A stretch of DNA of 64,000 nucleotides from Odontesthes bonariensis. Taxonomy: Eukaryota > Chordata > Actinopteri > Atheriniformes > Atherinopsidae. Each line of letters begins with the position of its first letter. Positions within the stretch are counted from its first letter, which is position 1. The notes beneath the pieces are model-generated. The model had not been told where the DNA came from, made no database searches, and saw only the letters and a list, made by a program, of their open reading frames with translations. The DNA is taken from assembly GCF_027942865.1 (NCBI RefSeq), contig NC_134526.1, positions 3,092,470 through 3,156,469 of the forward strand, read 5' to 3'. Below are positions 6,401-63,300 of the stretch, piece after piece. Position numbers and translations under genes: made by a program.

Positions 6401-9400
6401 CCTGCAGGTTGTTGTTACTCAGGTCCAGTTCTGTCAGGCTGGAGGACTGGGAGCTGAGAGCTGAGGACAGAGCTGCACAGCTTCTCTCTGAGAGGTTACA
6501 GCCGCTCAGTCTGAGGAGGGAATAACAGGAAGAGAATTAAGTTATGTAGTTATTCATTATTCAAGTTAAAGATGGTTGAATTAATTAATAATGATGACAT
6601 TTATCCTAGTTATATATTATAAAGTGTTGCCACATTCTTGCAGCGTGTTTCTTTCCTCTTGATGTAAACTGATCTGATGGAACTGTTTGCTGTGAATCTG
6701 TGTTATCTACAAACTGAAATTATCTGACAAATAACTCAGTTATTTTCTCTCCTTTTAACAAGTAAACAGAGCATTTAAAACATATTTATCTCTGTACTCA
6801 CACAGCTTTGTTGGAGGCTTTGGCCACTGGCAGCAGCCTCAGAAGAGCCTCCTCTGAAGCAGAGTATTTCTTCAGCTCAAACTCATCCAGATGTTTTCCT
6901 GATGACAGTAAGATGAAGACCAGAGCTGACCACTGAGCAGGAGACAGTTTATCTGTGGAGAGACGTCCTGAACTCAGGGCCTGTTGGATCTGCTCCACCA
7001 GAGAACGATCATTCAGTTCATTCAGACAGTGGAACAGATTGATGCTTCTCTCTGCAGACAGATTCTCACTGATCTTCTTCTTGATGTAATCAACTGTTTC
7101 CTGATTGGTCTGTGAGCTACTTCCTGTCTGTGTCAGCAGGCCTCGTAGGAGCCTCTGATTGGTCTGCAGGGAAAGACCCAGGAGGAAGCGGAGGAACAGG
7201 TCCAGGTGTCCGTTTGGACTCTCTAAGGCCTTGTTCACAGAAATCTGATGGAAGAGAGTCTTTTTCAGTGTTTTAGACTTCTTAGACTTTGGTTGTTCTC
7301 CCATCAGGTTGAGTCCAGAGTTGATGAAGGTCCGATGCACATGAAGAGCAGCCAGAAACTCCTGAACACTCAGATGGATGAAGCAGAACACCTTCTCCTG
7401 GTACAGCCCTCTCTCCTCTCTAAAGATCTGTGTGAACACTCCTGAGTACACTGAGGCTGCTGAGATATCGATGCCACACTCTGTCAGGTCTGATTCATAG
7501 AAGATCAGGTTTCCTTTCTGCAGCTGCTCAAAAGCCAGTTTTCCCAGAGACTCAATCATCTTCCTGCTCTCTGGACTCCAGTGTGGATCTGTCGCAGCTC
7601 CTCCATCATACTTGAGCTTCTTCACTTTGGCCTGAACCACCAGGAAGTGGATGTACATCTCGGTCAGGGTGCTGGGCAGCTCTCCTCCCTCTCTGGTTTC
7701 CAACACTTTCTCCAGAACTGTAGCAGTGATCCAGCAGAAGACCGGGATGTGGCACATGATGTGGAGGCTTCGGGATGTCTGGATGTGGGAGATGATCCTG
7801 CTGGCCTGCTCCTCATCTCTGAACCTCTTCCTGAAGTACTCCTCCTTCTGTGGGTCAGTGAACCCTCTGACCTCTGTCACCATGCCGACACAGCCAGCAG
7901 GGATCTGACTGGCTGCTGCAGGTCGTGTGGTTATCCAGAGGCGAGCAGAGGGAAGCAGCTCCCCCCTGATGAGGTTTGTCAGCAGCACATCCACTGAGGT
8001 GGGCTCTGTAGCATCAGTCAGGGGCTCCTTGCTGTGGAAGTCCAGAGGAAGTCGACACTCATCCAGACCGTCAAAGATGAACACAACCTGGAACTGTTCA
8101 AAGCTGCAGATTCCTGCTGCTTTGGTCTCAGTAAAGAAGTGATGAACAAGCTCCACCAAGCTGAACTTTCTCTCTTTCAGCACATTCAGCTCTCTGAAAG
8201 TGAATGGAAACATGAAGTGGATGTCCTGGTTGGCTTTGCCTTCAGCCCAGTCCAGAGTGAACTTCTGTGTTAAGACTGTTTTCCCAATGCCAGCCACTCC
8301 CTTTGTCAGCACTGTTCTGATTGGTTCATCTCTTCCAGGTGGGCCTTTAAAGATGTCTTCCTGTCTGATGGATGTTTCTGCTCTGCCTGCTTTCCTGGAT
8401 GCTGCTTCAATCTGTCTGACCTCATGTTCATCATTGACCTCTCCGCTCCCTCCCTCTGTGATGTAGAGCTCTGTGTAGATCTGATTCAGAAGGGTTGGCT
8501 TTCCTGCTTTAGGAATCCCCTCAAACACACACTGGAACTTCTTCTTCAGAGCACATTTAAGTTTAAGTTGATGCAGTTCTGATTGAAGGCAAGAAATAAC
8601 ATCAGTAAACAGACATTTCCACCCTGTACAGAATGAGTATCTGAACATCTGCTGTTCTGTGTGCTGAGACATCAGTAAATGTGTCATTTATCCAGCAGGT
8701 TAAACCTTTAGAGAAATCCTCTTACTGCTCTGCAGACGGTCAGCCAGCTCCTCCTGCTTCATTCTCCTCAGGAAGTGAACTGTGATCTTCACTAACGCCT
8801 CTCTGCTGCTCCTCTGCTCTTCATCCTCACCCTCCCTCTGACTCTCTAAGCATTCTGGGTAATCTGGACTCAGAGCCTTCTGCATCTTCTTCAGCTCCTC
8901 CTTCACAAAAGTGAGCATGTTGTCCTCCAGCAGCTGGAACAGAAAACTATATGAATGAGCCGATCAGACTGAAACCATGGAGCCAAACATCAGATCCATG
9001 TTGGACACACTGACAACCCACTGGCCTACAGAGTGCAGCATGGAGATGGCTGTGAGCAGAACAGATGGGAAAGTAGTTATTGTACATGTACAGACCATAA
9101 ATATGGAGTCCAGCTGTGTTTGATGCTGCTGGGCAGACGGACCACTGGGACCCTCTGAGCTCTGCTGGTCCACTCTGAGGAGGAATCATGAAGAATGAGC
9201 TCACATTGTGTCTGTGCACACAGAGAGCAACACAAGCTGAAGGTCCATGAAGGGATGTGTGGATTTTAACCGCCTGGCCACGCCCACACCGTTCAGAGTT
9301 TGGAAAAGTTTCTCCATGACTTTTTTCCCCCCATGTCTTAAGAGTAACCTGACCAAGTTTGGAGCTGTTACCATTAAATCTGTAGGAGGAGTTCGATCAA

Positions 9401-25400: not shown

Positions 25401-28400
25401 GGTATTTTTGTCCTCTTTCACACAATGTCACACTCATTGACCTCTGCCACCCAGATTTATCACAAATTGCCTCTGAGCGCAAAGTTCCATCCCTCAATCC
25501 CATTATAAATGGCTAAAATCCTAAAATCTGTGTTTAAATGTGATTTTAAAATTGCCATTTAAAAGGAGCCCGAGGGGTTAGCCGAATGAAAATCACACCG
25601 CTGGATTCGGCCGTCCCTTGTGGCGCTCACGGTACAAAAATGATACGGATTCGAGCTTTACTTTTCGAGCTGTGACCGTTTGTTCGAGAAAGTAGCCGGA
25701 AATCAAAAATGCTCCATTTTAAGCAGCTCATAGTCTGTGTCATTTGCAGCACCTGGCAGTTAAAAGTCTATGCAAACTTTAACGAGCGGTCTCCTAGCAA
25801 CAAGCTTAAGAGCCTGCTCAGGGCTGAGACAGACTGCTTAGGAAGAATAGACCGAGATGGAGCCCGTCAGTAGCCATTTTGGGGCTTCCACATCTTATCC
25901 AAGTATCCAAGTAAATGCATTAAAGGGCCAGTTCGCCTCTTTTAAGGTACAGAACGCTTCTTTAAAGGCACAGTTCGCCGCTTTAAAGGCTCAGTTCGCC
26001 TCTTTTAAGTGACAGTTTGCTGCGTTAAAGGGCCAGTTCGCCTTTTTAAAGGTACAGAACACTTCTTTAAAGGCACAGTTCGCCGCTTTAAAGGCCCAGT
26101 TCGCCTCTTTTAAGTGACAGTTTGCTGCTTTAAAGGGCCAGTTCGCCTTTTTAAAGCTACAGAACGCTAATTTAAAGGGCCAGTTCGCCTTTTTAAAGGT
26201 ACAGAACGCTTCTTTAAAGGGACAGTTCGCCGCTTTAAAGGCCCAGTTCGCCTCTTTTAAGTGACAGTTTGCTGCTTTAAAGGGCCAGTTCGCCTTTTTA
26301 AAGGTACAGAACACTTCTTTAAAGGCACAGTTCGCCGCTTTAAAGGCCCAGTTCGCCTCTTTTAAGTGACAGTTTGCTGCTTTAAAGGGCCAGTTCGCCT
26401 TTTTAAAGCTACAGAACGCTAATTTAAAGGGCCAGTTCGCCTTTTTAAAGGTACAGAACGCTTCTTTAAAGGCACAGTTCGCCGCTTTAAAGGCCCAGTT
26501 CGCCTCTTTTAAGTGACAGTTTGCTGCTTTAAAGGGCCAGTTCGCCTTTTTAAAGCTACAGAACGCTAATTTAAAGGGCCAGTTCGCCTTTTTAAAGGTA
26601 CAGAACGCTTCTTTAAAGGCACAGTTCGCCGCTTTAAAGGCCCAGTTCGCCTCTTTTAAGTGACAGTTTGCTGCTTTAAAGGGCCAGTTCGCCTTTTTAA
26701 AGCTACAGAACGCTAATTTAAAGGGCCAGTTCGCCTTTTTAAAGGTACAGAACGCTTCTTTAAAGGCACAGTTCGCCGCTTTAAAGGCCCAGTTCGCCTC
26801 TTTTAAGTGACAGTTTGCCGCTTTAAAGGCCCAGTTTGCCTCTTTTAAGGGACAGTTTGCTGCTTTAAAGGGCCAGTTCGCCTTTTTAAAGCTACAGAAC
26901 ACTTCTTTAAAGGGACAGTTCGCCGCTACAAATTCATTTTACATCTACAAAGTGTCTTCAGAAGACCTGTCTCAGAGAATTTTGGGTCTCGCAGAGACCC
27001 AAAATTCCATTGAAATATCTATTGAAAAGCACTTAACGAGCCAAATATGCCAAAAAATGCCCTGTTTTGGAGGCCTCAAAGCTCAGCCATACGACATCGC
27101 AAAGACCTCATTCAAAGTTTATATGTACCAGGAGGCTCTCAATGTTCTTCAGAAGACCTGTCTTAGGAATTTTGGGTCTCGCAGAGACCCAAAATTCAAA
27201 GGAAAAATCGCTTTAAAAGCACTATTTTGGAGTTGCCATAACTCTGTCATACGACATCACAGACACCTCATTCAAAGTTTATATGTCACAGGAGTCTCTC
27301 AACTTTCTTCAGAAGACCTGTCTTAGGAATTTTGGGTCTCGCAGAGACCCAAAATTCAAAGGAAAAATCGCTTGAAAAGCACTTAACGAGCCAAAAATGC
27401 CAAAAAATGCCCTGTTTTGGAGGCCTCATAACTCAGCCATCCGACATCGCAGAGACCTCATTCAAAGTTTATATGGGACAGGAGACTCTCGACTTTAACT
27501 AAACTAAACATTTTTAAATTTTTGGGCGGGCAGTAGATTGGCACCCATCAAAATTTCTTCAGAAATTTTCTAGTTATATATTATAAAGTGTTGCCACATT
27601 CTTGCACCGTGTTTCTTTCCTCTTGATGTAAACTGATCTGATGGAACTGTTTGCTGTGAATCTGTGTTATCTACAAACTGAAATTATCTGAGAAATAACT
27701 CAGTTATTTTCTCTCCTTTTAACAAGTAAACAGAGCATTTAAAACATATTTATCTCTGTACTTACACAGCTTTGTTGGAGGCTTTGACCACTGGCAGCAG
27801 CCTCAGAAGAGCCTCCTCTGAAGCAGAGTATTTCTTCAGCTCAAACTCATCCAGATGTTTTCCTGATGACAGTAAGATGAAGCCCAGAGCTGACCACTGA
27901 GCAGGAGACAGTTTATATGTGGAGAGACTTCCTGAACTCAGGGCCTGTTGGATCTCCTCCACCAGAGAACGATCATTCAGTTCATTCAGACAGTGGAACA
28001 GATTGATGCTTCTCTCTGCAGACAGATTCTCACTGATCTTCTTCTTGATGTAATCGACTGTTTCCTGATTGGTCTGTGAGCTACTTCCTGTCTGTGTCAG
28101 AAGGCCTCGTAGGAGCCTCTGATTGGTCTGCAGGGAAAGACCCAGGAGGAAGCGGAGGAACAGGTCCAGGTGTCCGTTTGGACTCTCTAAGGCCCTGTAC
28201 ACAGCAATCTGATTGAGATCATTCAGATCAATGGCGGTTGTTTCTTCTTGTTCTTCATCTTCTCTCATCAGGTTGAGTCCAGAGTTGATGAAGGTCAGAT
28301 GCACATGAAGAGCAGCCAGAAACTCCTGAACACTCAGATGGATGAAGCAGAACACCTTCTCCTGGTACAGCCCTCTCTCCTCTCTAAAGATCTGTGTGAA

Positions 28401-31400
28401 CACTCCTGAGTACACTGAGGCTGCTGAGATATTGATGCCACACTCTGTCAGGTCTGATTCATAGAAGATCAGGTTTCCTTTCTGCAGCTGCTCAAAAGCC
28501 AGTTTTCCCAGAGACTCAATCATCTTCCTGCTCTCTGGACTCCAGTGTGGATCTGTCTCAGCTCCTCCATCATACTTGAGCTTCTTCACTTTGGCCTGAA
28601 CCACCAGGAAGTGGATGTACATGTCAGTCAGGGTGCTGGGCAGCTCTGCTCCCTCTCTGGTGTCCAACACATCCTCCAGAACTGTAGCAGTGATCCAGCA
28701 GAAGACCGGGATGCGGCACATGATGTGGAGGCTTCGGGATGTCTGGATGTGGGAGATGATCCTGCTGGCCTGCTCCTCATCTCTGAACCTCTTCCTGAAG
28801 TACTCCTCCTTCTGTGGGTCAGTGAACCCTCTGACCTCTGTCACCATGCCAACACAGCCAGCAGGGATCTGATTGGCTGCTGCAGGTCGTGTGGTTATCC
28901 AGAGGCGAGCAGAGGGAAGCAGCTTCCCCCTGATGAGGTTTGTCAGCAGCACATCCACTGAGGTGGGCTCTGTAGCATCAGTCAGGGGCTCCTTGATGTG
29001 GAAGTCCAGAGGAAGTCGACACTCATCCAGACCGTCAAAGATGAACACAACCTGGAACTGTTCAAAGCTGCAGATTCCTGCTGCTTTGGTCTCAGTAAAG
29101 AAGTGATGAACAAGCTCCACCAAGCTGAACTTTCTCTCTTTCAGCACATTCAGCTCTCTGAAAGTGAATGGAAACATGAAGTGGATGTCCTGGTTGGCTT
29201 TGCCTTCAGCCCAGTCCAGAGTGAACTTCTGTGTTAAGACTGTTTTCCCAATGCCAGCCACTCCCTTTGTCATCACTGTTCTGATTGGTTCATCTCTTCC
29301 AGGTGGGCCTTTAAAGATGTCTTCATGTCTGATGGATGTTTCTGCTCTGCCTGCTTTCCTGGATGCTGCTTCAATCTGTCTGACCTCATGTTCATCATTG
29401 ACCTCTCCGCTCCCTCCCTCTGTGATGTAGAGCTCTGTGTAGATCTGATTCAGAAGGGTTGGCTTTCCTGCTTTAGGAATCCCCTCAAACACACACTGGA
29501 ACTTCTTCTTCAGAGCACATTTAAGTTTAAGTTGATGCAGTTCTGATTGAAGGCAAGAAATAACATCAGTAAACAGACATTTCAACCCTGTACAGAATGA
29601 GTATCTGAACATCTGCTGTTCTGTGTGCTGAGACATCAGTAAATGTGTCATTTATCCAGCAGGTTAAACCTTTAGAGGAATCCTCTTACCGCTCTGCAGA
29701 CGGTCAGCCAGCTCCTCCTGCTTCATTCTCCTCAGGAAGTGAACTGTGATCTTCACTAATGCCTCTCTGCTGCTCCTCTGCTCTTCATCCTCACCCTCCC
29801 TCTGACTCCCTAAGCATTCTGGGTAATCTGGACTCAGAGCCTTCTGCATCTTTTTCAGCTCCTTCTTCACAAAAGTGAGCATGTTGTCCTCCAGCAGCTG
29901 GAACAGAAAACTATATGAATGAGCCCATCAGACTGAAACCATGGAGCCAAACATCAGATCCATGTTGGACACACTGACAGCCCGCTGGTCTACAGAGTGC
30001 AGCATGGAGATGGCTGTGAGCAGAACAGATGGAAAAGTAGTTGTTGTACATGTACAGACCATAAATATGGAGTCCAGCTGTGTTTGATGCTGCTGGGCAG
30101 ACGGACCACTGGGACCCTCTGAGCTCTGCTGGTCCACTCTGTGGAGGAATCATGAAGAATGAGCTCACAATGTGTCTGTCCACACAGAGAGCAACACAAG
30201 CTGAAGGTCCATGAAGGGATGTGTGGATGTGAGCAGTGAACGCAGCCATAAAGCAGCTGATTAACTCTGAAGCTGCACATCATCAGCATCTGTGTTCCAG
30301 AAGATAAGAGCTCAGTGTGTTTCTCACAGTGGGAGGAAGCTGAGGTCAGATGAAGCAGTGTGAGGAGGAAGGGATACAGAACTGTGTGAACTGACAAAAG
30401 ATTTGTTTCTTTGTGAGGAGTCCAGCTGACGTGTTGGTTGGATCGTAGCTGTAGTTTCTAAAATACAACAAAAACTTCAGTCTGGAATTAGTTCATTGGT
30501 TTCCAAATTTATTGAACAGAAACGAGTTCAAAGAAATGATTTCAGAGTCTTCACTGACCGACTTCTTTGTATTTAGAAAACAGAACCAAATGTAGAACCT
30601 GATGCAGCAACACTCAGTAAAAGTTGTTCTGGAGTCACAGAAAGACGGAAAGTTTACAGAATCTACAGGAACAGCGTTCTGGAAGCTTCTCCAACCAGCA
30701 GGTTATCTGCTGACAGGTGAGGGTGTCAGGATTGGGTATAACAGCAGCATCCACCAAAGGTTCAGCCTCTCCAACAAGGATGGGTCATGGCTCACCACTT
30801 TGGGCCAAACTCCATCAGAGAATCATCAGTAAGTTCAGCAAATATTTCTCAGAGTAAGATTGTAAATAACTTTGGTCTTTCAGCATCAAAATGTTAATTT
30901 GACTCCCTAAAATTTGTTTCAATAAAGAGCTGCAAGACTAAAGTAACTAAATTGTAACTATATATATGACATAGTATTGTAAATAAACTAACTAATAGTA
31001 ACTAAAGTGGAGCTCCTCCCCCATCTGAAGGAAACTCATTTCAGCTACTTGTATCCACGACCTCCTTCTGTGGGTCTCTACCCAGATCTGTGCCCACAGG
31101 TGAGGGTTGGAGCAAAGATGGAGCAGTAACCTGAAAGCTTCTCCTTCCTGCTCAGCTCCCTCTTCACCACCACAGACCGGAGCAGCGCCCTCATTACTGC
31201 CGACGAAGCCCCAATCCGTCTGTCCATCTCTAACTCCAACTCACCATCACTGAGAACCAGATCTAAAGATACTTAAACTCCTTCGCCTGCGACAGAGACT
31301 CATCCTCGACTAGGAGAGAGCATTCCACCTTTTTCCGGTTGATAACCATGATTTAGAAGAGCCGACTTTCATGACAGCTGCTTCCCACTCAGCTATGAAC

Positions 31401-53648: not shown

Positions 53649-54390
53649 TCAGCACAGAGACAACCAGGAACCATGTGAACCTAACCAGACTGTAAACCCA
53701 GGATGCAGAGGTTCTTCAGTGAATGTGGTGCTGAAGGTGTGGAGGTGGATCAGTGTGTCAGAGGAGACTCTGTAGAAGGACAGAGTGCCAGCAGGACGGT
53801 CCACATACACTGCTGCTCTGTTACCGACAGAGGAGGAGGAGGAGGAGGAGGAGGAGGAGGAGGAGGAGGAGGAGGAGATGGATGTTTCTCTGTTATTGTG
53901 CCTGACAGAGTAACCTCCATCAGAGCACCTCAGACTCCAGGACTGATCATTGTATCCAAACATACAGTCACTGTCTCCTCCTCTCCTGCTGATTCCTCTG
54001 TAACTCACTGATATATAAACTCTTCCTCTCCACTCGACCTCCCAGTAACAGCGACCAGTCAGAACATTTCTACACAGCAGCTGAGCACAGTCATCAAACC
54101 TGTCTGGATGATCAGGATATGACTGATCCTCCTTCACACATGTCACCTTCCTGTTGTTGTCAGACAGTTTCAGGTTTCTGTTCACTGTGTTTGTGTCGAT
54201 TATGAGTTGACAGGAATCTGATGGAGAGAACAAACACAATCCAGCTGCAGTTATTGATCTATCATCTGTTCACTTTGATCAATGAGTGATGTGACAGTGT
54301 GAAGATGGCTGGATGTCATGAATCAGATGAAGAACACACTCACACTTCCTCAGCCCTGGTGTCAGCCATCGTTCTCCAGCAGGCTCCACC
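53649..54390 (-). CDS. Gene 3 junction exon and B30.2 exon with poly-Ser loop
   Basis: Junction exon 54344-54390 and B30.2 exon 53649-54217. PRY ([22 protein letters not shown]) and SPRY ([34 protein letters not shown]) motifs are intact. An uninterrupted (GGA)n tract at about 53831-53875 of the plus strand encodes a long Ser run between the WSL block and the YVDRPAG core, longer than in gene 2. The C-terminus ([10 protein letters not shown]) also differs from the usual family end. Confidence 0.92.
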
Positions 54391-57300
54391 CTGAAAGGAG
54401 GAGGGGGGTCAGAGCAGCACCGTCTCTTTCAGCATCAAACATGGACATTACATGGCTCTCACACACACACTGTTCTACACTGAGAGAGATGCTGACTGCT
54501 CATGAGGACTTCACACAGCCCCACTTCAGAAACACAGAAATGTCCCTTTAACTGGATGAATAAAGTCTCTGAATCTGCTGAATATGTTTCCTTACAGGCT
54601 GAGCATTAACCAGCAGATGGTTGCTGGTATGTATGTTTTCTTTGGGGCCCATTTATCTGAGGAATGACACGATAAACCTCCATCATTCTGACAGATCCAC
54701 GCTGTTTTAAGGGGACACCGGCTAATGCTGGCAGACATTTCCTCCTCCCCCTCACAGAGGTTTGCTCCTCCCTCGCTGCTCGGCATCACTTCTAACCAGC
54801 TCATGAGCCGGTTAGAAGGGAAATGATTAAAGCAGCAGAGCTCTCCTTACCTGAGAGTGTCCAGCCTCCACTGTGGATCCTCCAGTCCAGCTGAGAGCTG
54901 CCTCACTGCTGAGTCTCCTGGATGGTTGTAGCTCAGGTCCAGCTCTCTCAGATGGGAGGGGTTGGAGGTCAGAGCTGAGACCAGAGAAGCACAGCCTTCC
55001 TCTGTGATCAGACAGCCTGACAGGCTGCAGGAAACAACACAAATGGCAGAAACTGAGAGAAAAGACTCCAACAGCAGACACCATCCTGAACAGGTCAGCT
55101 GTTCATCCATGACTGTAAAGCAGAATTAAAATGATCAGCAGCTGAACAGTTGAATGAATTCTGACCTGAGAGCTTCCAGGTCACAGTTTGGACTCTGCAG
55201 TCCAACAGACAGCTGCTTCAGCCCTGAATCCTGCAGGTTGTTGTTACTCAGGTCCAGTTCTGTCAGGCTGGAGGACTGGGAGCTGAGAGCTGAGGACAGA
55301 GCTGCACAGCTTCTCTCTGAGAGGTTACAGCCGCTCAGTCTGAGGAGGGAATAACAGGAAGAGAATTAAGTTATGTAGTTATTCATTATTCAAGTTAAAG
55401 ATGGTTGAATTAATGAATAATGATGACATTTATCCTAATTATGGGTGCCGATGCTGGACTATTATTCTTCCGTTTCCGTCATGAATTTCGGTTACCTACT
55501 AGTCTAGCAGCGATGGTCCGACCGGCATAAAAAAGCACACCGCTGCGTGCGCAACGACCTCGATCGGTGTGCAATGACGTTTGGCTCTCATTAGTCAAAA
55601 GGAATTCCGGCTAAATCGGAAAAAGTGGGAAAATTGTGGATGGGAAAATGCATTGAAGAGCACTTAACGAGCCAATTTTGGCGCTCAAAATTCCTTATTT
55701 CAGAGGCCATATAACTCAGCCATAAACCATAACACAGACCTCATTCAAAGTTTATATGTGACAGGAGACTCTCAGCTTTAACTGAAGTAAAGGGTTTGTT
55801 GATAGGGCGGGCAGTAGATTGGCACCCATCAAAATGTCTTCAGAAATTTTCTAGTTATATATTATAAAGTGTTGCCACCTTCTTGCAGCGTGTTTCTTTC
55901 CTCTTGATGTAAACTGATCTGATGGAACTGTTTGCTGTGAATCTGTGTTATCTACAAACTGAAATTATCTGAGAAATAACTCAGTTATTTTCTCTCCTTT
56001 AAACAAGAAAACAGCAGACACCATCCTGAACAGGTCAGCTGTTCATCCATGACTGTAAAGCAGAATTAAAATGATCAGCAGCTGAACAGTTGAATGAATC
56101 CTGACCTGAGAGCTTCCAGGTCACAGTTTGGACTCTGCAGTCCAACAGACAGCTGCTTCAGCCCTGAATCCTGCAGGTTGTTGTTACTCAGGTCCAGTTC
56201 TGTCAGGCTGGAGGACTGGGAGCTGAGAGCTGAGGACAGAGCTGCACAGCTTCTCTCTGAGAGGTTACAGCCGCTCAGTCTGAGGAGGGAATAACAGGAA
56301 GAGAATTAAGTTATGTAGTTATTCATTATTCAAGTTAAAGATGGTTGAATTCATTAATAATGATGACATTTATCCTAGTTATATATTATAAAGTGTTTCC
56401 ACATTCTTGCAGCGTGTTTCTTTCCTCTTGATGTAAACTGATCTGATGGAACTGTTTGCTGTGAATCTGTGTTATTTACAAACTGAAATTATCTGAGAAA
56501 TAACTCAGTTATTTTCTCTCCTTTTAACAAGTAAACAGAGCATTTAAAACATATTTATCTCTGTACTCACACAGCTTTGTTGGAGGCTTTGACCACTGGC
56601 AGCAGCCTCAGAAGAGCCTCCTCTGAAGCAGAGTATTTCTTCAGCTCAAACTCATCCAGATGTTTTCCTGATGACAGTAAGATGAAGACCAGAGCTGACC
56701 ACTGAGCAGGAGACAGTTCATCTGTGGAGAGACTTCCTGATCTCAGGGCCTGTTGGATCTCCTCCACCAGAGAACGATCATTCAGTTCATTCAGACAGTG
56801 GAACAGATTGATGCTTCTCTCTGCAGACAGATTCTCACTGATCTTCTTCTTGATGTAATCAACTGTTTCCTGATTGGTCTGTGAGCTACTTCCTGTCTGT
56901 GTCAGCAGGCCTCGTAGGAGCCTCTGATTGGTCTGCAGGGAAAGACCCAGGAGGAAGCGGAGGAACAGGTCCAGGTGTCCGTTTGGACTCTCTAAGGCCT
57001 TGTTCACAGCACTCTGGTAGAAGAGAGTCTCTTTCAGTGTTTTAGACTTCTTAGACTTTGGTTGTTCTCTCATCAGGTTGAGTCCAGAGTTGCTGAAGGT
57101 CAGATGCACATGAAGAGCAGCCAGAAACTCCTGAACACTCAGATGGATGAAGCAGAACACCTTCTCCTGGTACAGCCCTCTCTCCTCTCTAAAGATCTGT
57201 GTGAACACTCCTGAGTACACTGAGGCTGCTGAGATATCGATGCCACACTCTGTCAGGTCTGATTCATAGAAGATCAGGTTTCCTTTCTGCAGCTGCTCAA

Positions 57301-60300
57301 AAGCCAGTTTTCCCAGAGACTCAATCATCTTCCTGCTCTCTGGACTCCAGTGTGGATCTATCTCAGCTCCTCCATCATACTTGAGCTTCTTCACTTTGGC
57401 CTGAACCACCAGGAAGTGGATGTACATCTCAGTCAGGGTGCTGGGCAGCTCTGCTCCCTCTCTGGTGTCCAACACATCCTCCAGAACTGTAGCAGTGATC
57501 CAGCAGAAGACCGGGATGTGGCACATGATGTGGAGGCTTCGGGATGTCTGGATGTGGGAGATGATCCTGCTGGCCTGCTCCTCATCTCTGAATCTCTTCC
57601 TGAAGTACTCCTCCTTCTGTGGGTCAGTGAACCCTCTGACCTCTGTCACCATGCCAACACAGCCAGCAGGGATCTGATTGGCTGCTGCGGGTCGTGTGGT
57701 TATCCAGAGGCGAGCAGAGGGAAGCAGCTCCCCCCTGATGAGGTTTGTCAGCAGCACATCCACTGAGGTGGGCTCTGTAGCATCAGTCAGGGGCTCCTTG
57801 CTGTGGAAGTCCAGAGGAAGTCGACACTCATCCAGACCGTCAAAGATGAACACAACCTGGAACTGTTCAAAGCTGCAGATTCCTGCTGCTTTGGTCTCAG
57901 TAAAGAAGTGATGAACAAGCTCCACCAAGCTGAACTTTCTCTCTTTCAGCACATTCAGCTCTCTGAAAGTGAATGGAAACATGAAGTGGATGTCCTGGTT
58001 GGCTTTGCCTTCAGCCCAGTCCAGAGTGAACTTCTGTGTTAAGACTGTTTTCCCAATGCCAGCCACTCCCTTTGTCAGCACTGTTCTGATTGGTTCATCT
58101 CTTCCAGGTGGGCCTTTAAAGATGTCTTCCTGTCTGATGGATGTTTCTGCTCTGCCTGCTTTCCTGGATGCTGCTTCAATCTGTCTGACCTCATGTTCAT
58201 CATTGACCTCTCCGCTCCCTCCCTCTGTGATGTAGAGCTCTGTGTAGATCTGATTCAGAAGGGTTGGCTTTCCTGCTTTAGGAATCCCCTCAAACACACA
58301 CTGGAACTTCTTCTTCAGAGCAGATTTAACTTTACGTCCACAAAGTTCTGAATGAAGAGAACAAGTAACATCAGTCAACAGACATTTCAACCCTGTACAG
58401 AATGAGTATCTGAACATCTGCTGTTCTGTGTGCTGAGCAGGGCTCCGAACCGGTTCAAGGAACGAAAACGAAAACCGAAAACGAACGGAATTTTACGAGG
58501 AACGGAAACGGAAACGAAAACGAAATGGTCTTCAACTATTCCGGAACAGAAACGTTATTCTGAAATCCACAAAACCGGTTAATAACGTTTTTTTTCGTTC
58601 TCTATATATTTTATAAAGTTTCACAAAAGCATAGCCTTTGTCAGGGGAAAAAAAAAGACTACTTCCGGTTGTGCGTTCACTTCGCTGCCCGCTAGGCTCA
58701 ATGCAGGCAGCTGTCACGAATCACTTCCTTTATCCACTACTTAGTCTAGTTATCCACTAGTTATCCACTAGTTAAGTGATGGTTCGGAGTAGATTCACCC
58801 TAGGGTCATTTGAACCGTGACATCCAGCCAAGTAGCCCACCCGCAGTTTTTCCGATATTGGCTGAACATCAGCTGAGTTACTGAGTTATCCCGAATAGCT
58901 TAGTACAAGCGCTAACGGACCCTGGCAGTATCTCCAAAATGACCACACTAAAATCACATGCCATGACACCAAACTTCTACAGTAGTACAACTATGGTCTG
59001 TACTCACAAAACGATGCATTTGGAAGTTTGTACATAGTCCAGGAGTTTATTATTATCAACACAAGCCTAATAGCTTCTCTGTTGCTAAAGCTGCGTCAAC
59101 GTCACTTCCTTGATCTGGGAGCTTCAATGTAAGATGAGGGTTGATCTACTACTGTAGACAACAAAGCAAGGCTGCTCAATTTCTCCATTGATAAAATAAA
59201 TTCACAACTCTACAACAATAAAAATTCATAAAAAAACCATGTAGAATATAGCATATACTTTGTTGTCTCCAGTAGTAGATCAACCCTCATCTTACATTGA
59301 AGCTCCCAGATCGAGGAAGTGACGTTGACGCAGCTTTAGCCCATCTGAATGTTTTTGGATGCTGCCGGTGATTTATTATTTTTGGGCATAGAGCTACGGT
59401 GTAAATCAAGGGCAAATACTAATGAGTACGTCTATTCTAAGGTAAAGTCCACACACGTAGACTTGATAGGCCCGCCAAACACTGCTGGAACGATAAGAAC
59501 GAACGATATTTTACGTTCCGAACCGGAAAACGTTAAACATGCCTGAACCGTTCGGAACGGAACGATTGAAAAATAATTTCGTTTTCATGCCCTGGTGCTG
59601 AGACATCAGTAAATGTGTAATTTATCCAGCAGGTTAAATCTTTAGAGAAATCCTCTTACTACGGTGAGTAAAATGCGGCAATGACAAAAACGACCGGAGC
59701 ACACGCGCTGCAAACCCCAAAACACAATGGAAGTTCGCAAGGCCACTAGGGGGTCTCGACCTGTGGGATAGGGGATCGACTATGGGAGATCTACTATATT
59801 AATGAAAGAGAAGAAAGTCAAAAGGTACGTTGTCATTTATGTCTTTTTTAAACACTTGGCCGTAATCTTTTACTTTATTATAGAAGAGCAGCGGAGTTAT
59901 GTCACTATAATAAGGTAAAAGATTACGGCCAAGTGTTTAAAAAAGACTTTCTTCTCTTTCATTAATGTGGTAGATCTCCCATAGTCGATCCCCTATCCCA
60001 CAGGTCGAGACCCCCTAGTGGCCTGGCGAACTTCCGTTGTGATTTGAAGTTTGCAGCATTTTTCTCTTGCAGCATTTTATTGTTGGATTTGTTTCGGCGT
60101 TTGCAGCACTTTTGCACGTGTCGGCCACCGTATCTTACTGCTCTGCAGACGGTCAGCCAGCTCCTCCTGCTTCATTCTCCTCAGGAAGTGAGCTGTGATC
60201 TTCACTAATGCCTCTCTGCTGCTCCTCTGCTCTTCATCCTCACCCTCCCTCTGACTCTCTAAGCATTCTGGGTAATCTGGACTCAGAGCCTTCTGCATCT

Positions 60301-63300
60301 TCTTCAGCTCCTCCTTCACAAAAGTGAGCATGTTGTCCTCCAGCAGCTGGAACAGAAAACTATATGAATGAGCCAATCAGACTGAAACCATGGAGCCAAA
60401 CATCAGATCCATGTTGGACACACTGACAACCCGCTGGCCTACAGAGTGCAGCATGGAGATGGCTGTGAGCAGAACAGATGGAAAAGTAGTTGTTGTACAT
60501 GTACAGACCATAAATATGGAGTCCAGCTGTGTTTGATGCTGCTGGGCAGACGGACCACTGGGACCCTCTGAGCTCTGCTGGTCCACTCTGTGGAGGAATC
60601 ATGAAGAATGAGCTCACATTGTGTCTGTCCACACAGAGAGCAACACAAGGTGAAGGTCCATGAAGGGATGTGTGGATGTGAGCAGTGAACGCAGCCATAA
60701 AGCAGCTGATTAACTCTGAAGCTGCTCATCATCAGCATCTGTGTTCCAGAAGATAAGAGCTCAGTGTGTTTCTAACAGTGGGAGGAAGCTGATGTCAGAT
60801 GAAGCAGTGTGAGGAGGAAGGGATACAGAACTGTGTGAACAGACAAAAGATTTGTTTCTTTGTGAGGAGTCCAGCTGACGTGTTGGTTGGATCGTAGCTG
60901 TAGTTTCTCAAATACAACAAAAACTTCAGTCTGGAATTAGTTCATTGGTTTCCAAATTTATTGAACAGAAACAAGTCCAAAGAAATTATTTCAGAGTCTT
61001 CATTGACCAACTTCTTTGTATTCAGAAAACAGAACCAAATGTAGAACCTGATGCAGCAACACTCAGTAAAAGTTGTTCTGGTTCAGTCTCTCAACAAGGA
61101 TGGGTCGTGGCTCACCGCTTTGGGCCAAACTCCATCAGAGAATCATCAATAAGTTCAGCAAATATTTCTCAGAGTAAGATTGTAAAGAACTTTGCTCTTT
61201 CAGCATCTAAATGTTAATTTGACTCCCTAAAAGAGACCTATTTTAACATCCATTCTTTCCACTTTGACAGTTTCACATGTGAACATGAAATGGATGTGAA
61301 TCAGAGCTCACATTAAACACAAGTTGGAATAAGAACTGTTCAAACTGACTCTGGTACATTTTACAGTGTTACACCATTTACACACAGCTCACCTCTGAGG
61401 CCGTGAACGTTGGTCTGCTTTAAAGTTAATAAAATGATCCTTTGACCTGTCGCTCTGCATGGACACACAGCTGGGTTCAGGTTCAGGTTCAGGTTCAGGT
61501 TCAGGTTCAGGTTCAGGTTCAGGTTCAGGTTCAGGTTCAGGTCTCTGATAGCTGCTAACAGGAAAAAAACACTTGTTTAATTTAAATTTACATGTTCAGT
61601 AAAATTCAGTTTGGATTAAAAAGTAAAAATATGACAGATTTTGTTTTAAATTACATCAATAAAATGATACAAATATATCAATAAATCAACTGAAAATTAC
61701 ATTTTGTTTCAATAAAGAGCTGAAAGACTAAAGTAAACATCACATTACACACATGATGCAGATAATTAATCTCATCAGAGCAGAGGTGTCAAGTAACGAA
61801 GTACAAATACTTTGTTACTGTACTTAAGTACACTTTTTATGTATCTGTACTTTACTCCATTACTTATTTTTCTGCCTACTTCTGACTTCTACTTATTACA
61901 TTTTCACACAAGTATCTGTACTTTCTATTCCTTACATTTTCAAAACAAACAGCCTCGTTACTTTTTTTTCAGTTTAATGTTTATGTATTTCACGTCATGT
62001 GCGCCATCCACACCTAGTGAGAACGAGTGTAATTGGATGAATCATATAACGCAAACACTCATCGGTTAGGTTATTCGTCAAATTTGTGCTGACACACAAG
62101 GAAATCGTCATTCGTCAGAAGCAAGCAGGTGTTCTACAAACTGCAAAAGCGAAGCGTGTAACATAATCTTAGTATGTATGCAAAATTGTTGCACTCTCCT
62201 ACTCCGTGCCATTTTCAGAGCGTTTTAGGTGCTCTGTATGTAGTGTTAAAAAGCTCATTTTCGTTTCAGTTTTTGTCTTGACTGTCAGCTATGACAAAGG
62301 GGGAACGTGCGTGTGTATATCTTTTTTCTTTGAATTTTTCAGACAGTAAGACTTTTTTTTTTTTTTTTTTTGATGGGACGAACAGGAATACCTCACGACC
62401 TATCTCTTGAATACTACCTCATGTGTAATTGAATTCCAATAAAGTTTGAGAAAGAACATGCTCCTTGAGTGACTTTGTCTTTGACAGTAATGGTTTTTAT
62501 GATTGTTGTCTTGGGCCACATGTAGCACTAACCAGTTTTCAAATTAAGCTTGCAATTCATATAGTGGCATCTACCTTTTTGTGTGTGTTTTTTTTTACTT
62601 TATTTTTTTTTTTTTATTTAAAGGTTACTTTATACTTTTATACTTTAAGTAGGTTTTGGAGCACATACTTTTTCACTTTTACTTGAGTAGAGGTCAAGTT
62701 GATACTTCAACTTTTACCAGTGTTTTAAAACTGCAGTATCTATACTTCTACTTAAGTAACAAATGTGTGTACTTTTGACACCACTGCATCAGAGACATCA
62801 AGAACTGATCCAAGTCTGAAATAATTCATCTGAAACATGATGCAGCCTCCACTGAACACTGAAAACTACTGACTGACAGTCTGATGAAAGACTCTGTCTG
62901 AGCCCCCCAACACTTTTTACTGATCCTCTCGTAAAGGACCCACTGCTGTACTGAGGTTCAGCTTCATGTTATTGATCCATGTGACTTTGTTCATGTTAGA
63001 CTGTTTGTAAAGCAGCTGACTTTGTTCATGTTAGACTGTTTGTAAAGCAGCTGACTTTGTTCATGTTAGACTGTAAAGCAGCTGACTTTGTTCATGTTAG
63101 ACTGTTTGTAAAGCAGCTGACTTTGTTCATGTTAGACTGTTTGTAAAGCAGCTGACTTTGTTCATGTTAGACTGTTTGTAAAGCAGCTGACTTTGTTCAT
63201 GTCAGACTGTTTGTAAAGCAGCCGACTTTGTTCATGTCAGACTGTTTGTAAAGCAGCCGACTTTGTTCATGTTAGACTGTTTGTAAAGCAGCTGACTTTG

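What the first reader, a model, noticed from the sequence alone, without database searches (positions are those of the whole stretch)
59654..60138. Foldback transposon landed on a splice donor and its target duplication rebuilds the donor
Seen: the helical exon of gene 3 ends at 60139, followed on the minus strand by GTAAGA (60138-60133), then TACGGTG-ended foldback DNA, then a second GTAAGA (59659-59654) and normal intron. In genes 1 and 2 there is a single GTAAGA at this exon. The 6-bp TSD equals the donor hexamer, so the insertion is splice-neutral in sequence and leaves two candidate donors. Removing both inserts and their TSDs leaves exactly 147 bp of intron, as in the paralogs. Inference: the element may favour GTAAGA-like targets, a way to enter genes without harm.
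Basis: partly seen in the sequence, partly recalled or inferred. Interest (0 to 1): 0.85.

Follow-up and report, generated by a model that had tools for sequence, protein, structure and literature searches.

The report
Transposon copy sitting on splice donor
In a fish immune-receptor gene a small hairpin-forming jumping element landed exactly at an intron start and copied the six letters that mark it, but sister copies examined elsewhere in the genome landed on unrelated sequences, so this looks like a lucky landing and not a donor-seeking habit.

Summary
The anatomy is confirmed to the base. In gene 3 of a teleost-like FISNA-NACHT-PRY/SPRY cluster, a 473-bp element (TACGGTG..CACCGTA, 59660-60132) is flanked by identical GTAAGA hexamers (59654-59659, 60133-60138). 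The outer one is donor +1..+6, the inner its duplicate. Genes 1 and 2, and a fourth paralog fetched next door, have one GTAAGA at this junction. The 1791-bp intron is 147 + 479 + 1165, the last being a hAT-like insert with its TSD. By published signatures (6-bp TSD, TAYGG..CCRTA ends) the element fits a non-autonomous IS3EU transposon, here with foldback arms; no transposase was found. The proposed preference for GTAAGA-like targets fails: of 22 other independent insertions recovered from the same genome, none is GTAAGA or GTRAGN, and mean similarity to GTAAGA equals chance. The family has a weak palindromic target pattern that this site fits, but generic splice donors score slightly below random. 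Best reading: an ordinary insertion, tolerated because the -3..+6 donor 9-mer is untouched, leaving two nearly equal donors 479 nt apart at the base of a strong hairpin. Inner-donor use would truncate the protein. Which donor is used needs RNA-seq.

The parts
60139..60346 (-). Helical exon of gene 3 (208 nt, phase-1 end ..CTGCAGAGC A|)
   Evidence: 98-99% identical to exons at 8726-8933 and 29691-29897; reads LLEDNMLTFVKEELKK..ELADRLQS; 0 Pfam hits for the ORF holding it
60133..60138 (-). Outer copy of TSD GTAAGA = original donor +1..+6 (D1, GCA|GTAAGA)
59660..60132 (-). 473-bp non-autonomous IS3EU-like foldback element, TACGGTG..CACCGTA
   Evidence: sister copies
59707..59819 (.). Arm of the element's inverted repeat (pairs with 59945-60057, 113 nt, 94% complementary)
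59945..60057 (.). Other arm of the element's inverted repeat
59654..59659 (-). Inner copy of TSD GTAAGA = second candidate donor (D2, GTA|GTAAGA)
58430..59602 (-). Second insert in the same intron: hAT-like element 58438-59594 (1157 bp, CAGGGC..GCCCTG) with 8-bp TSD CTCAGCAC on both sides
58348..60138 (-). Gene 3 intron, 1791 nt; 147 nt without both inserts and one TSD each
56570..58347 (-). Open part of the gene 3 exon with FISNA, NACHT, NOD2_WH and NLRC4_HD2 domains (its 3' splice-out point was not located)
53652..54269 (-). Stop-to-stop ORF holding the gene 3 PRY/SPRY domain
8579..8725 (-). Empty site: gene 1 intron, 147 nt, single GTAAGA
29543..29689 (-). Empty site: gene 2 intron, 147 nt, single GTAAGA (exon ends in G, GCG|GTAAGA)

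Best explanation
A small non-autonomous IS3EU-type DNA transposon, mobilised by a transposase acting in trans (inferred), inserted by a 6-bp staggered cut at the first six bases of a 147-nt intron of one NLR paralog after the paralogs had separated. Gap repair duplicated the cut hexamer, which here is the splice donor (shown as sequence). The insertion survives because the whole -3..+6 donor 9-mer next to the exon is untouched and everything inserted lies in an intron (shown as sequence; survival for this reason inferred). The second GTAAGA is a by-product of the duplication and a near-equal cryptic donor. I expect the exon-proximal donor to be used mostly: it keeps the 208-nt exon, while the inner one makes a 687-nt exon with a stop after 20 further codons (usage inferred, not tested). 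The position is a coincidence within a weak palindromic target preference unrelated to splicing.
For: Empty sites in genes 1, 2 and 4. Exact intron arithmetic. 25 of 40 distinct places scored in the same genome (23 independent events including this one) have both ends and identical 6-bp flanks. Published IS3EU signatures: TA..TA termini and usually 6-bp TSDs (PMC10045372, passages); 6-bp TSDs and TAYGG..CCRTA ends in fungal families (PMC12730594, passages). The 22 other targets show no GTAAGA bias but a palindromic pattern that 0 of 1000 background draws reached. The used site scores in the top 4.4% of random sites and is 9th of 142 possible sites in the homologous gene 1 intron.
Against: No IS3EU transposase was identified for this family. 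Donor usage is unmeasured. The sample of 22 is small: zero of 22 leaves room for up to about 13% donor-like targets at 95% (own arithmetic). Distance of the other copies to exons could not be tabulated, since the genome is unannotated here. Element ends were looked for with TACGGTG-like motifs, so agreement of the ends is partly built in. 4 of 40 places have both ends but no TSD.
Confidence: 0.86

Rival explanations
1. The transposase recognises donor-like GTAAGA or AG|GTRAGN sequence, so the element enters genes harmlessly.
For: This one site, which also fits the family's own target pattern well (top 4.4%); the published IS3EU-type element Styx inserts preferentially closer to genes (PMC10853768, passages).
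Against: 0 of 22 other TSDs are GTRAGN on either strand; similarity to GTAAGA is at chance; the recalled donor matrix scores below random under the family's target pattern. Of 20 flanking ORFs scanned out of 144, the two with Pfam hits were mobile-element genes, which is too few to say where copies lie. [quoted passage not shown]
Confidence: 0.03
2. Gene 3 has become a two-donor gene: the hairpin brings both donors together and their competition makes a regulated fraction of transcripts that end shortly after the helical exon, giving a short NLR form without NACHT or a decay target.
For: D1 and D2 score 4.70 and 4.91 with a recalled donor matrix, both weak because exon -1 is A; inner-donor use gives a stop after 20 further codons; the hairpin (-288 kcal/mol) closes at the very ends, with both hexamers unpaired in the MFE structure of the element plus TSDs.
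Against: No transcript data. Predicted accessibility in longer context is unremarkable (mean unpaired D1 0.52, D2 0.40, gene 1 donor 0.53). Exon definition would favour the 208-nt exon (recalled principle).
Confidence: 0.12
3. Selection after random landing: insertions elsewhere around this exon were lost and donor-compatible ones kept (survivorship), which would give a mild genome-wide excess at intron ends without any targeting.
For: The 9-mer donor is intact and the insert is intronic.
Against: Most intron interior positions should be equally harmless, so no excess at the donor is predicted; a hAT-like insert sits in mid-intron of the same gene.
Confidence: 0.08
4. Assembly or sequencing artefact.
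For: Long hairpins and tandem paralogs are hard to assemble (general knowledge).
Against: Exact TSD, exact intron arithmetic and 23 structurally consistent events in the same genome.
Confidence: 0.02

Closest known systems
IS3EU (IS3EU/GingerRoot) DNA transposons
   Same: 6-bp TSDs and TA..TA termini (PMC10045372, passages); TAYGG..CCRTA ends in fungal families (PMC12730594, passages); IS3EU is listed in one of four teleosts compared at 17,838 copies (PMC4746887, table passage)
   Different: No transposase found here; arms are long and in sister copies carry 34-bp minisatellite units; this copy has only 7 bp of terminal repeat left at one end
Foldback-type elements (Drosophila FB, Galileo, Tetris; seen as titles and abstract starts, otherwise recalled)
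   Same: Near-palindromic element with internally repetitive arms (L051: 41.6 copies of 34 bp)
   Different: Galileo is filed under the P superfamily (abstract start); TSD and ends here fit IS3EU
Introners (DNA transposons that create introns, some recruiting splice sites from TSDs; PMC9860276, passages)
   Same: A MITE-like element whose TSD carries a splice site
   Different: No new intron: it entered an intron that three paralogs have without it
Styx, an IS3EU-type element of Zymoseptoria (PMC10853768, passages)
   Same: 6-bp TSDs of varied sequence (ATCGAG, CGTGAT, TGTGAT, CATAAG are the four quoted in the passages)
   Different: About 7.9 kb, coding, fungal; authors report no sequence preference, whereas a weak palindromic one is seen here
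Dada transposons (PMC3706591, parts 1-2 of 4)
   Same: 6-7 bp TSDs, present in fish, target-specific DNA transposons
   Different: No terminal inverted repeats and small-RNA-gene targets; neither holds here

Membership tests
IS3EU | 6-bp TSD | tested here: met
   25 of 40 places, 23 independent events, identical 6-mers; 4 of 40 two-ended without TSD (L020, L025, L046, L048), 11 of 40 not two-ended in the DNA fetched
IS3EU | TA..TA termini | tested here: met
   23 of 23 events with TSD; the end search required TA and that required T..A with at most 3 of 12 mismatches, so this is partly built in
IS3EU | TAYGG..CCRTA ends (described for fungal families) | tested here: met
   21 of 23 events; L040 left end (TACAG) and L051 right end (AAGTA) deviate; same caveat on the end search
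IS3EU | IS3EU-type DDE transposase in autonomous relatives | not tested
   No autonomous copy was recovered; further genome searches did not complete. Stop-to-stop lengths of the 23 elements were measured, not scanned against profiles
IS3EU | TIR longer than 30 bp (fungal families) | tested here: inconclusive
   Window copy: 7 bp perfect, 14 of first 30 matched. In 21 of 22 sister events both ends begin with the family's 12-mer with 0-2 mismatches, L004 at one end only, and the printed first 150 bases of both ends are largely alike; TIR length was not measured
Introner | Insertion creates a new intron | tested here: not met
   Intron present in genes 1, 2 and 4 without the element
Dada | No TIRs; small-RNA gene targets | tested here: not met
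   Inverted termini present; target is a protein gene; no Rfam match at gathering score in 58300-60400
Foldback-type architecture | Long, internally repetitive inverted arms | tested here: met
   Inverted arms and fold of the window copy; tandem units measured in one sister copy, L051
hAT (second insert) | 8-bp TSD, CAGGG-type ends (recalled signature) | tested here: met
   CTCAGCAC twice, CAGGGC..GCCCTG; transposase not tested

The most novel reading that the evidence does not exclude
The duplication plus hairpin turned a constitutive NLR splice junction into a two-donor switch: two nearly identical donors held together at the base of a stable stem, whose choice sets the ratio of full-length receptor to a short helical-domain-only product, so a transposon's target duplication by itself created alternative splicing in an immune receptor.
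Probability: 0.1. Interest if true: 0.5.

Novelty: new member of a known kind. Interest (0 to 1): 0.3.

Why it matters
It is a clean natural test of donor choice: the same exon with two near-equal donors 479 nt apart, separated by a strong hairpin, and empty-site controls in three near-identical neighbours. It also shows that one striking insertion site does not imply targeting: a family census removes the idea and puts in its place a weak palindromic target pattern for an IS3EU-like family in this genome.

Tried and rejected
Donor targeting: rejected on 22 other insertions. Dada: rejected after reading parts 1-2 of 4 of the paper. Shorter or longer TSD readings (TA, TAA, 7 or 8 bp): sister copies fix 6 bp; the 7th base matches on the left in 9 and on the right in 7 of the 22 other events, near chance. 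Introner: rejected, no intron gained. Copies of the element in public collections: 0 in three exact-pattern viral-contig scans; the one genome-contig hit (L001) is a bacterial MAG; around the 19-mer I saw no further likeness in the printed sequence (by eye), so chance. Gene context of other copies: 20 of 144 flanking ORFs of 75+ codons scanned with Pfam, two hits, both mobile-element domains (L036 integrase core and zinc-binding, L009 DDE_3); too partial to tabulate distance to exons. Donor scores use a 5' splice-site matrix recalled from memory. Per-position p values of the target pattern are not corrected for the number of positions; the summed test is the one relied on. Papers seen as passages only: PMC10045372, PMC12730594, PMC9860276, PMC12763893, PMC4746887, PMC12277486, PMC10853768; the GingerRoot paper PMC6839031 was not held. 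A precedent for a TSD that duplicates an existing splice donor was sought in three searches: 9 of 9 papers listed; 15 of 56 listed; 15 of 59 listed; none was seen in titles and abstract starts, which is not proof of absence.

Full report
What is there. The window is teleost-like DNA (inferred from the fish-specific FISNA domain). Gene 3's main exon carries FISNA, NACHT, NOD2_WH and NLRC4_HD2 domains, and a downstream ORF a PRY/SPRY domain (Pfam; only gene 3 was scanned). Genes 1 and 2 have the same exon on the same strand, 98.5% and 97.0% identical to each other pairwise with gene 1 as query (gene 3 and gene 2 respectively). A helical exon lies just upstream: 8726-8933 in gene 1, 29691-29897 in gene 2, 60139-60346 in gene 3. 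In genes 1 and 2 the intron between them is 147 nt and starts GTAAGA. In gene 3 it is 1791 nt.

The insertion. On the minus strand gene 3 reads ..CTGCAGAGCA | GTAAGA | TACGGTGGCCGA ... TTTTACTCACCGTA | GTAAGA | GGATTTCTC. The element is 473 bp; with its extra hexamer it adds 479. A second, hAT-like insert (1157 bp, CAGGGC..GCCCTG, TSD CTCAGCAC) adds 1165. 1791 - 479 - 1165 = 147. A fourth paralog, about 20 kb beyond the window, is 99.0% identical in the exon, has an acceptor-side sequence closer to gene 3's than to gene 1's by eye, and is empty at both points. So both insertions post-date the split of gene 3 from it, unless gene conversion erased them.

What kind of element. 6-bp TSDs with TA..TA termini are given as the mark of IS3EU (PMC10045372, passages), and TAYGG..CCRTA ends with 6-bp TSDs for fungal IS3EU (PMC12730594, passages). 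The window's own genome (945,434,557 bases, 187 contigs) could be searched once: 237 matches, 623 first-look candidates, 40 scored, with the match list cut. The listed matches fall in 40 distinct places (my count), so this is a best-matching sample and not the whole family. In 25 of the 40 both ends and identical 6-bp flanks were found (three are one segmental triplication, leaving 23 independent events with the window's); four had both ends but no TSD (L020, L025, L046, L048); eleven lacked one or both ends in the DNA fetched. The ends were sought with TACGGTG-like motifs, so their likeness is partly built in; the TSDs were not. Lengths of the 23 run from 473 to 2036 bp. The arms of L051 hold a 34-bp unit in 41.6 copies, so 'foldback' is a fair description of the architecture. 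The longest stop-to-stop frames, up to 521 codons, read the terminal repeat and units of this kind; a transposase was not found. Membership in IS3EU therefore rests on termini and TSD, not on an enzyme.

A detail of this copy. In 21 of 22 sister events both ends begin TACGGTGGCCGA with 0-2 mismatches (L004 at one end only). The window copy does so on the exon side; on the other side only TACGGTG is kept before sequence that lies about 50 bp inside the arm of its relatives. Because the TSD at that end is perfect, either the element moved with a 7-bp terminus on one side or the rest of that repeat was lost later.

Is the target special? For the 22 other events the hexamers are all different; none is GTRAGN on either strand and 3 of 22 begin with GT on one strand; the mean best-strand match to GTAAGA is 50/22 = 2.27, the same as expected for random hexamers of that composition. 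There is a real but weak palindromic pattern over the TSD and its flanks: G favoured at -4, A nearly absent at -2 (2 of 44 symmetrised), G/C at +1, A at +2, A/T at +3 and the mirror images; 0 of 1000 sets drawn from the flanks reached its summed information. The gene 3 site scores 2.42, reached by 4.4% of random sites, and ranks 9th of 142 in the homologous gene 1 intron. A typical vertebrate donor (recalled matrix) scores -2.48 at positions -3..+6 against -1.77 for random sequence, so donors as a class are not favoured; this donor (GCA|GTAAGA, 1.76) does better because its exon end is an unusual GCA. [quoted passage not shown]

How surprising is it? Given an insertion in this intron, 1 of 142 positions gives a TSD equal to donor +1..+6. 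Genome-wide, with an assumed 200,000 introns in 945 Mb, a random insertion does this about 2 times in 10,000 (own estimate). For the few hundred candidate copies of this family that predicts less than one case; for the hundreds of thousands of DNA transposon copies that a fish genome may hold (recalled order of magnitude) it predicts tens. A reader going through windows for oddities will find one now and then.

What it does to splicing. The original donor GCA|GTAAGA is intact from -3 to +6. The inner candidate is GTA|GTAAGA. With the recalled matrix they score 4.70 and 4.91. Use of the inner donor extends the exon from 208 to 687 nt and brings a stop as codon 90 of the exon, after 20 further codons. 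As RNA the element with its TSDs folds at -288.2 kcal/mol (z -28.4), the stem closing at the terminal TACGGTG/CACCGTA and leaving both hexamers outside it; in longer context their predicted accessibility (0.52 and 0.40) is close to that of gene 1's donor (0.53). I expect mainly outer-donor use, by exon definition (recalled), but no transcript evidence was available.

Verdict. Observation confirmed; targeting inference not supported; the remaining open and testable point is donor choice in gene 3.

Noticed in passing
58438-59594: Second insert in the same intron, hAT-like, with an internal 83-nt inverted repeat (59084-59166/59258-59340, 98%) and its own GTAAGA starting at 59295.
   Followed up: partly
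59660-59726: Inner end of the window copy keeps only 7 bp of the family's terminal repeat yet has a perfect TSD: a natural deletion that may tell how little terminus the transposase needs.
   Followed up: partly
L051:1219-2634: Arm of a sister element holds a 34-bp minisatellite of 41.6 units; unit number may explain the length range of the family.
   Followed up: partly
L013, L014, L015: One insertion (TSD GCTTTC/GAAAGC) in three copies on contig C2 at about 1.76, 1.77 and 2.28 Mb: a segmental triplication that seems to have carried the element along.
   Followed up: no
L036:1262-1666: A sister copy lies 57 bp beyond an ORF with integrase core and H2C2 zinc-binding matches, probably an insertion into or beside a retroelement.
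   Followed up: no
60243: Inside the helical exon a donor-like site (AGG|GTGAGG, 8.7 by the recalled matrix) stronger than either GTAAGA; the stretch is identical in genes 1 and 2.
   Followed up: no
25994-26938: 315-codon stop-free minus-strand frame of repeated units (NWAFKAANCxLKEA-like) downstream of gene 2's NACHT exon, looks like a minisatellite.
   Followed up: no
29684-29692: Gene 2's donor is GCG|GTAAGA (exon -1 G), stronger by the recalled matrix (7.9 versus 4.7) than in genes 1 and 3.
   Followed up: no
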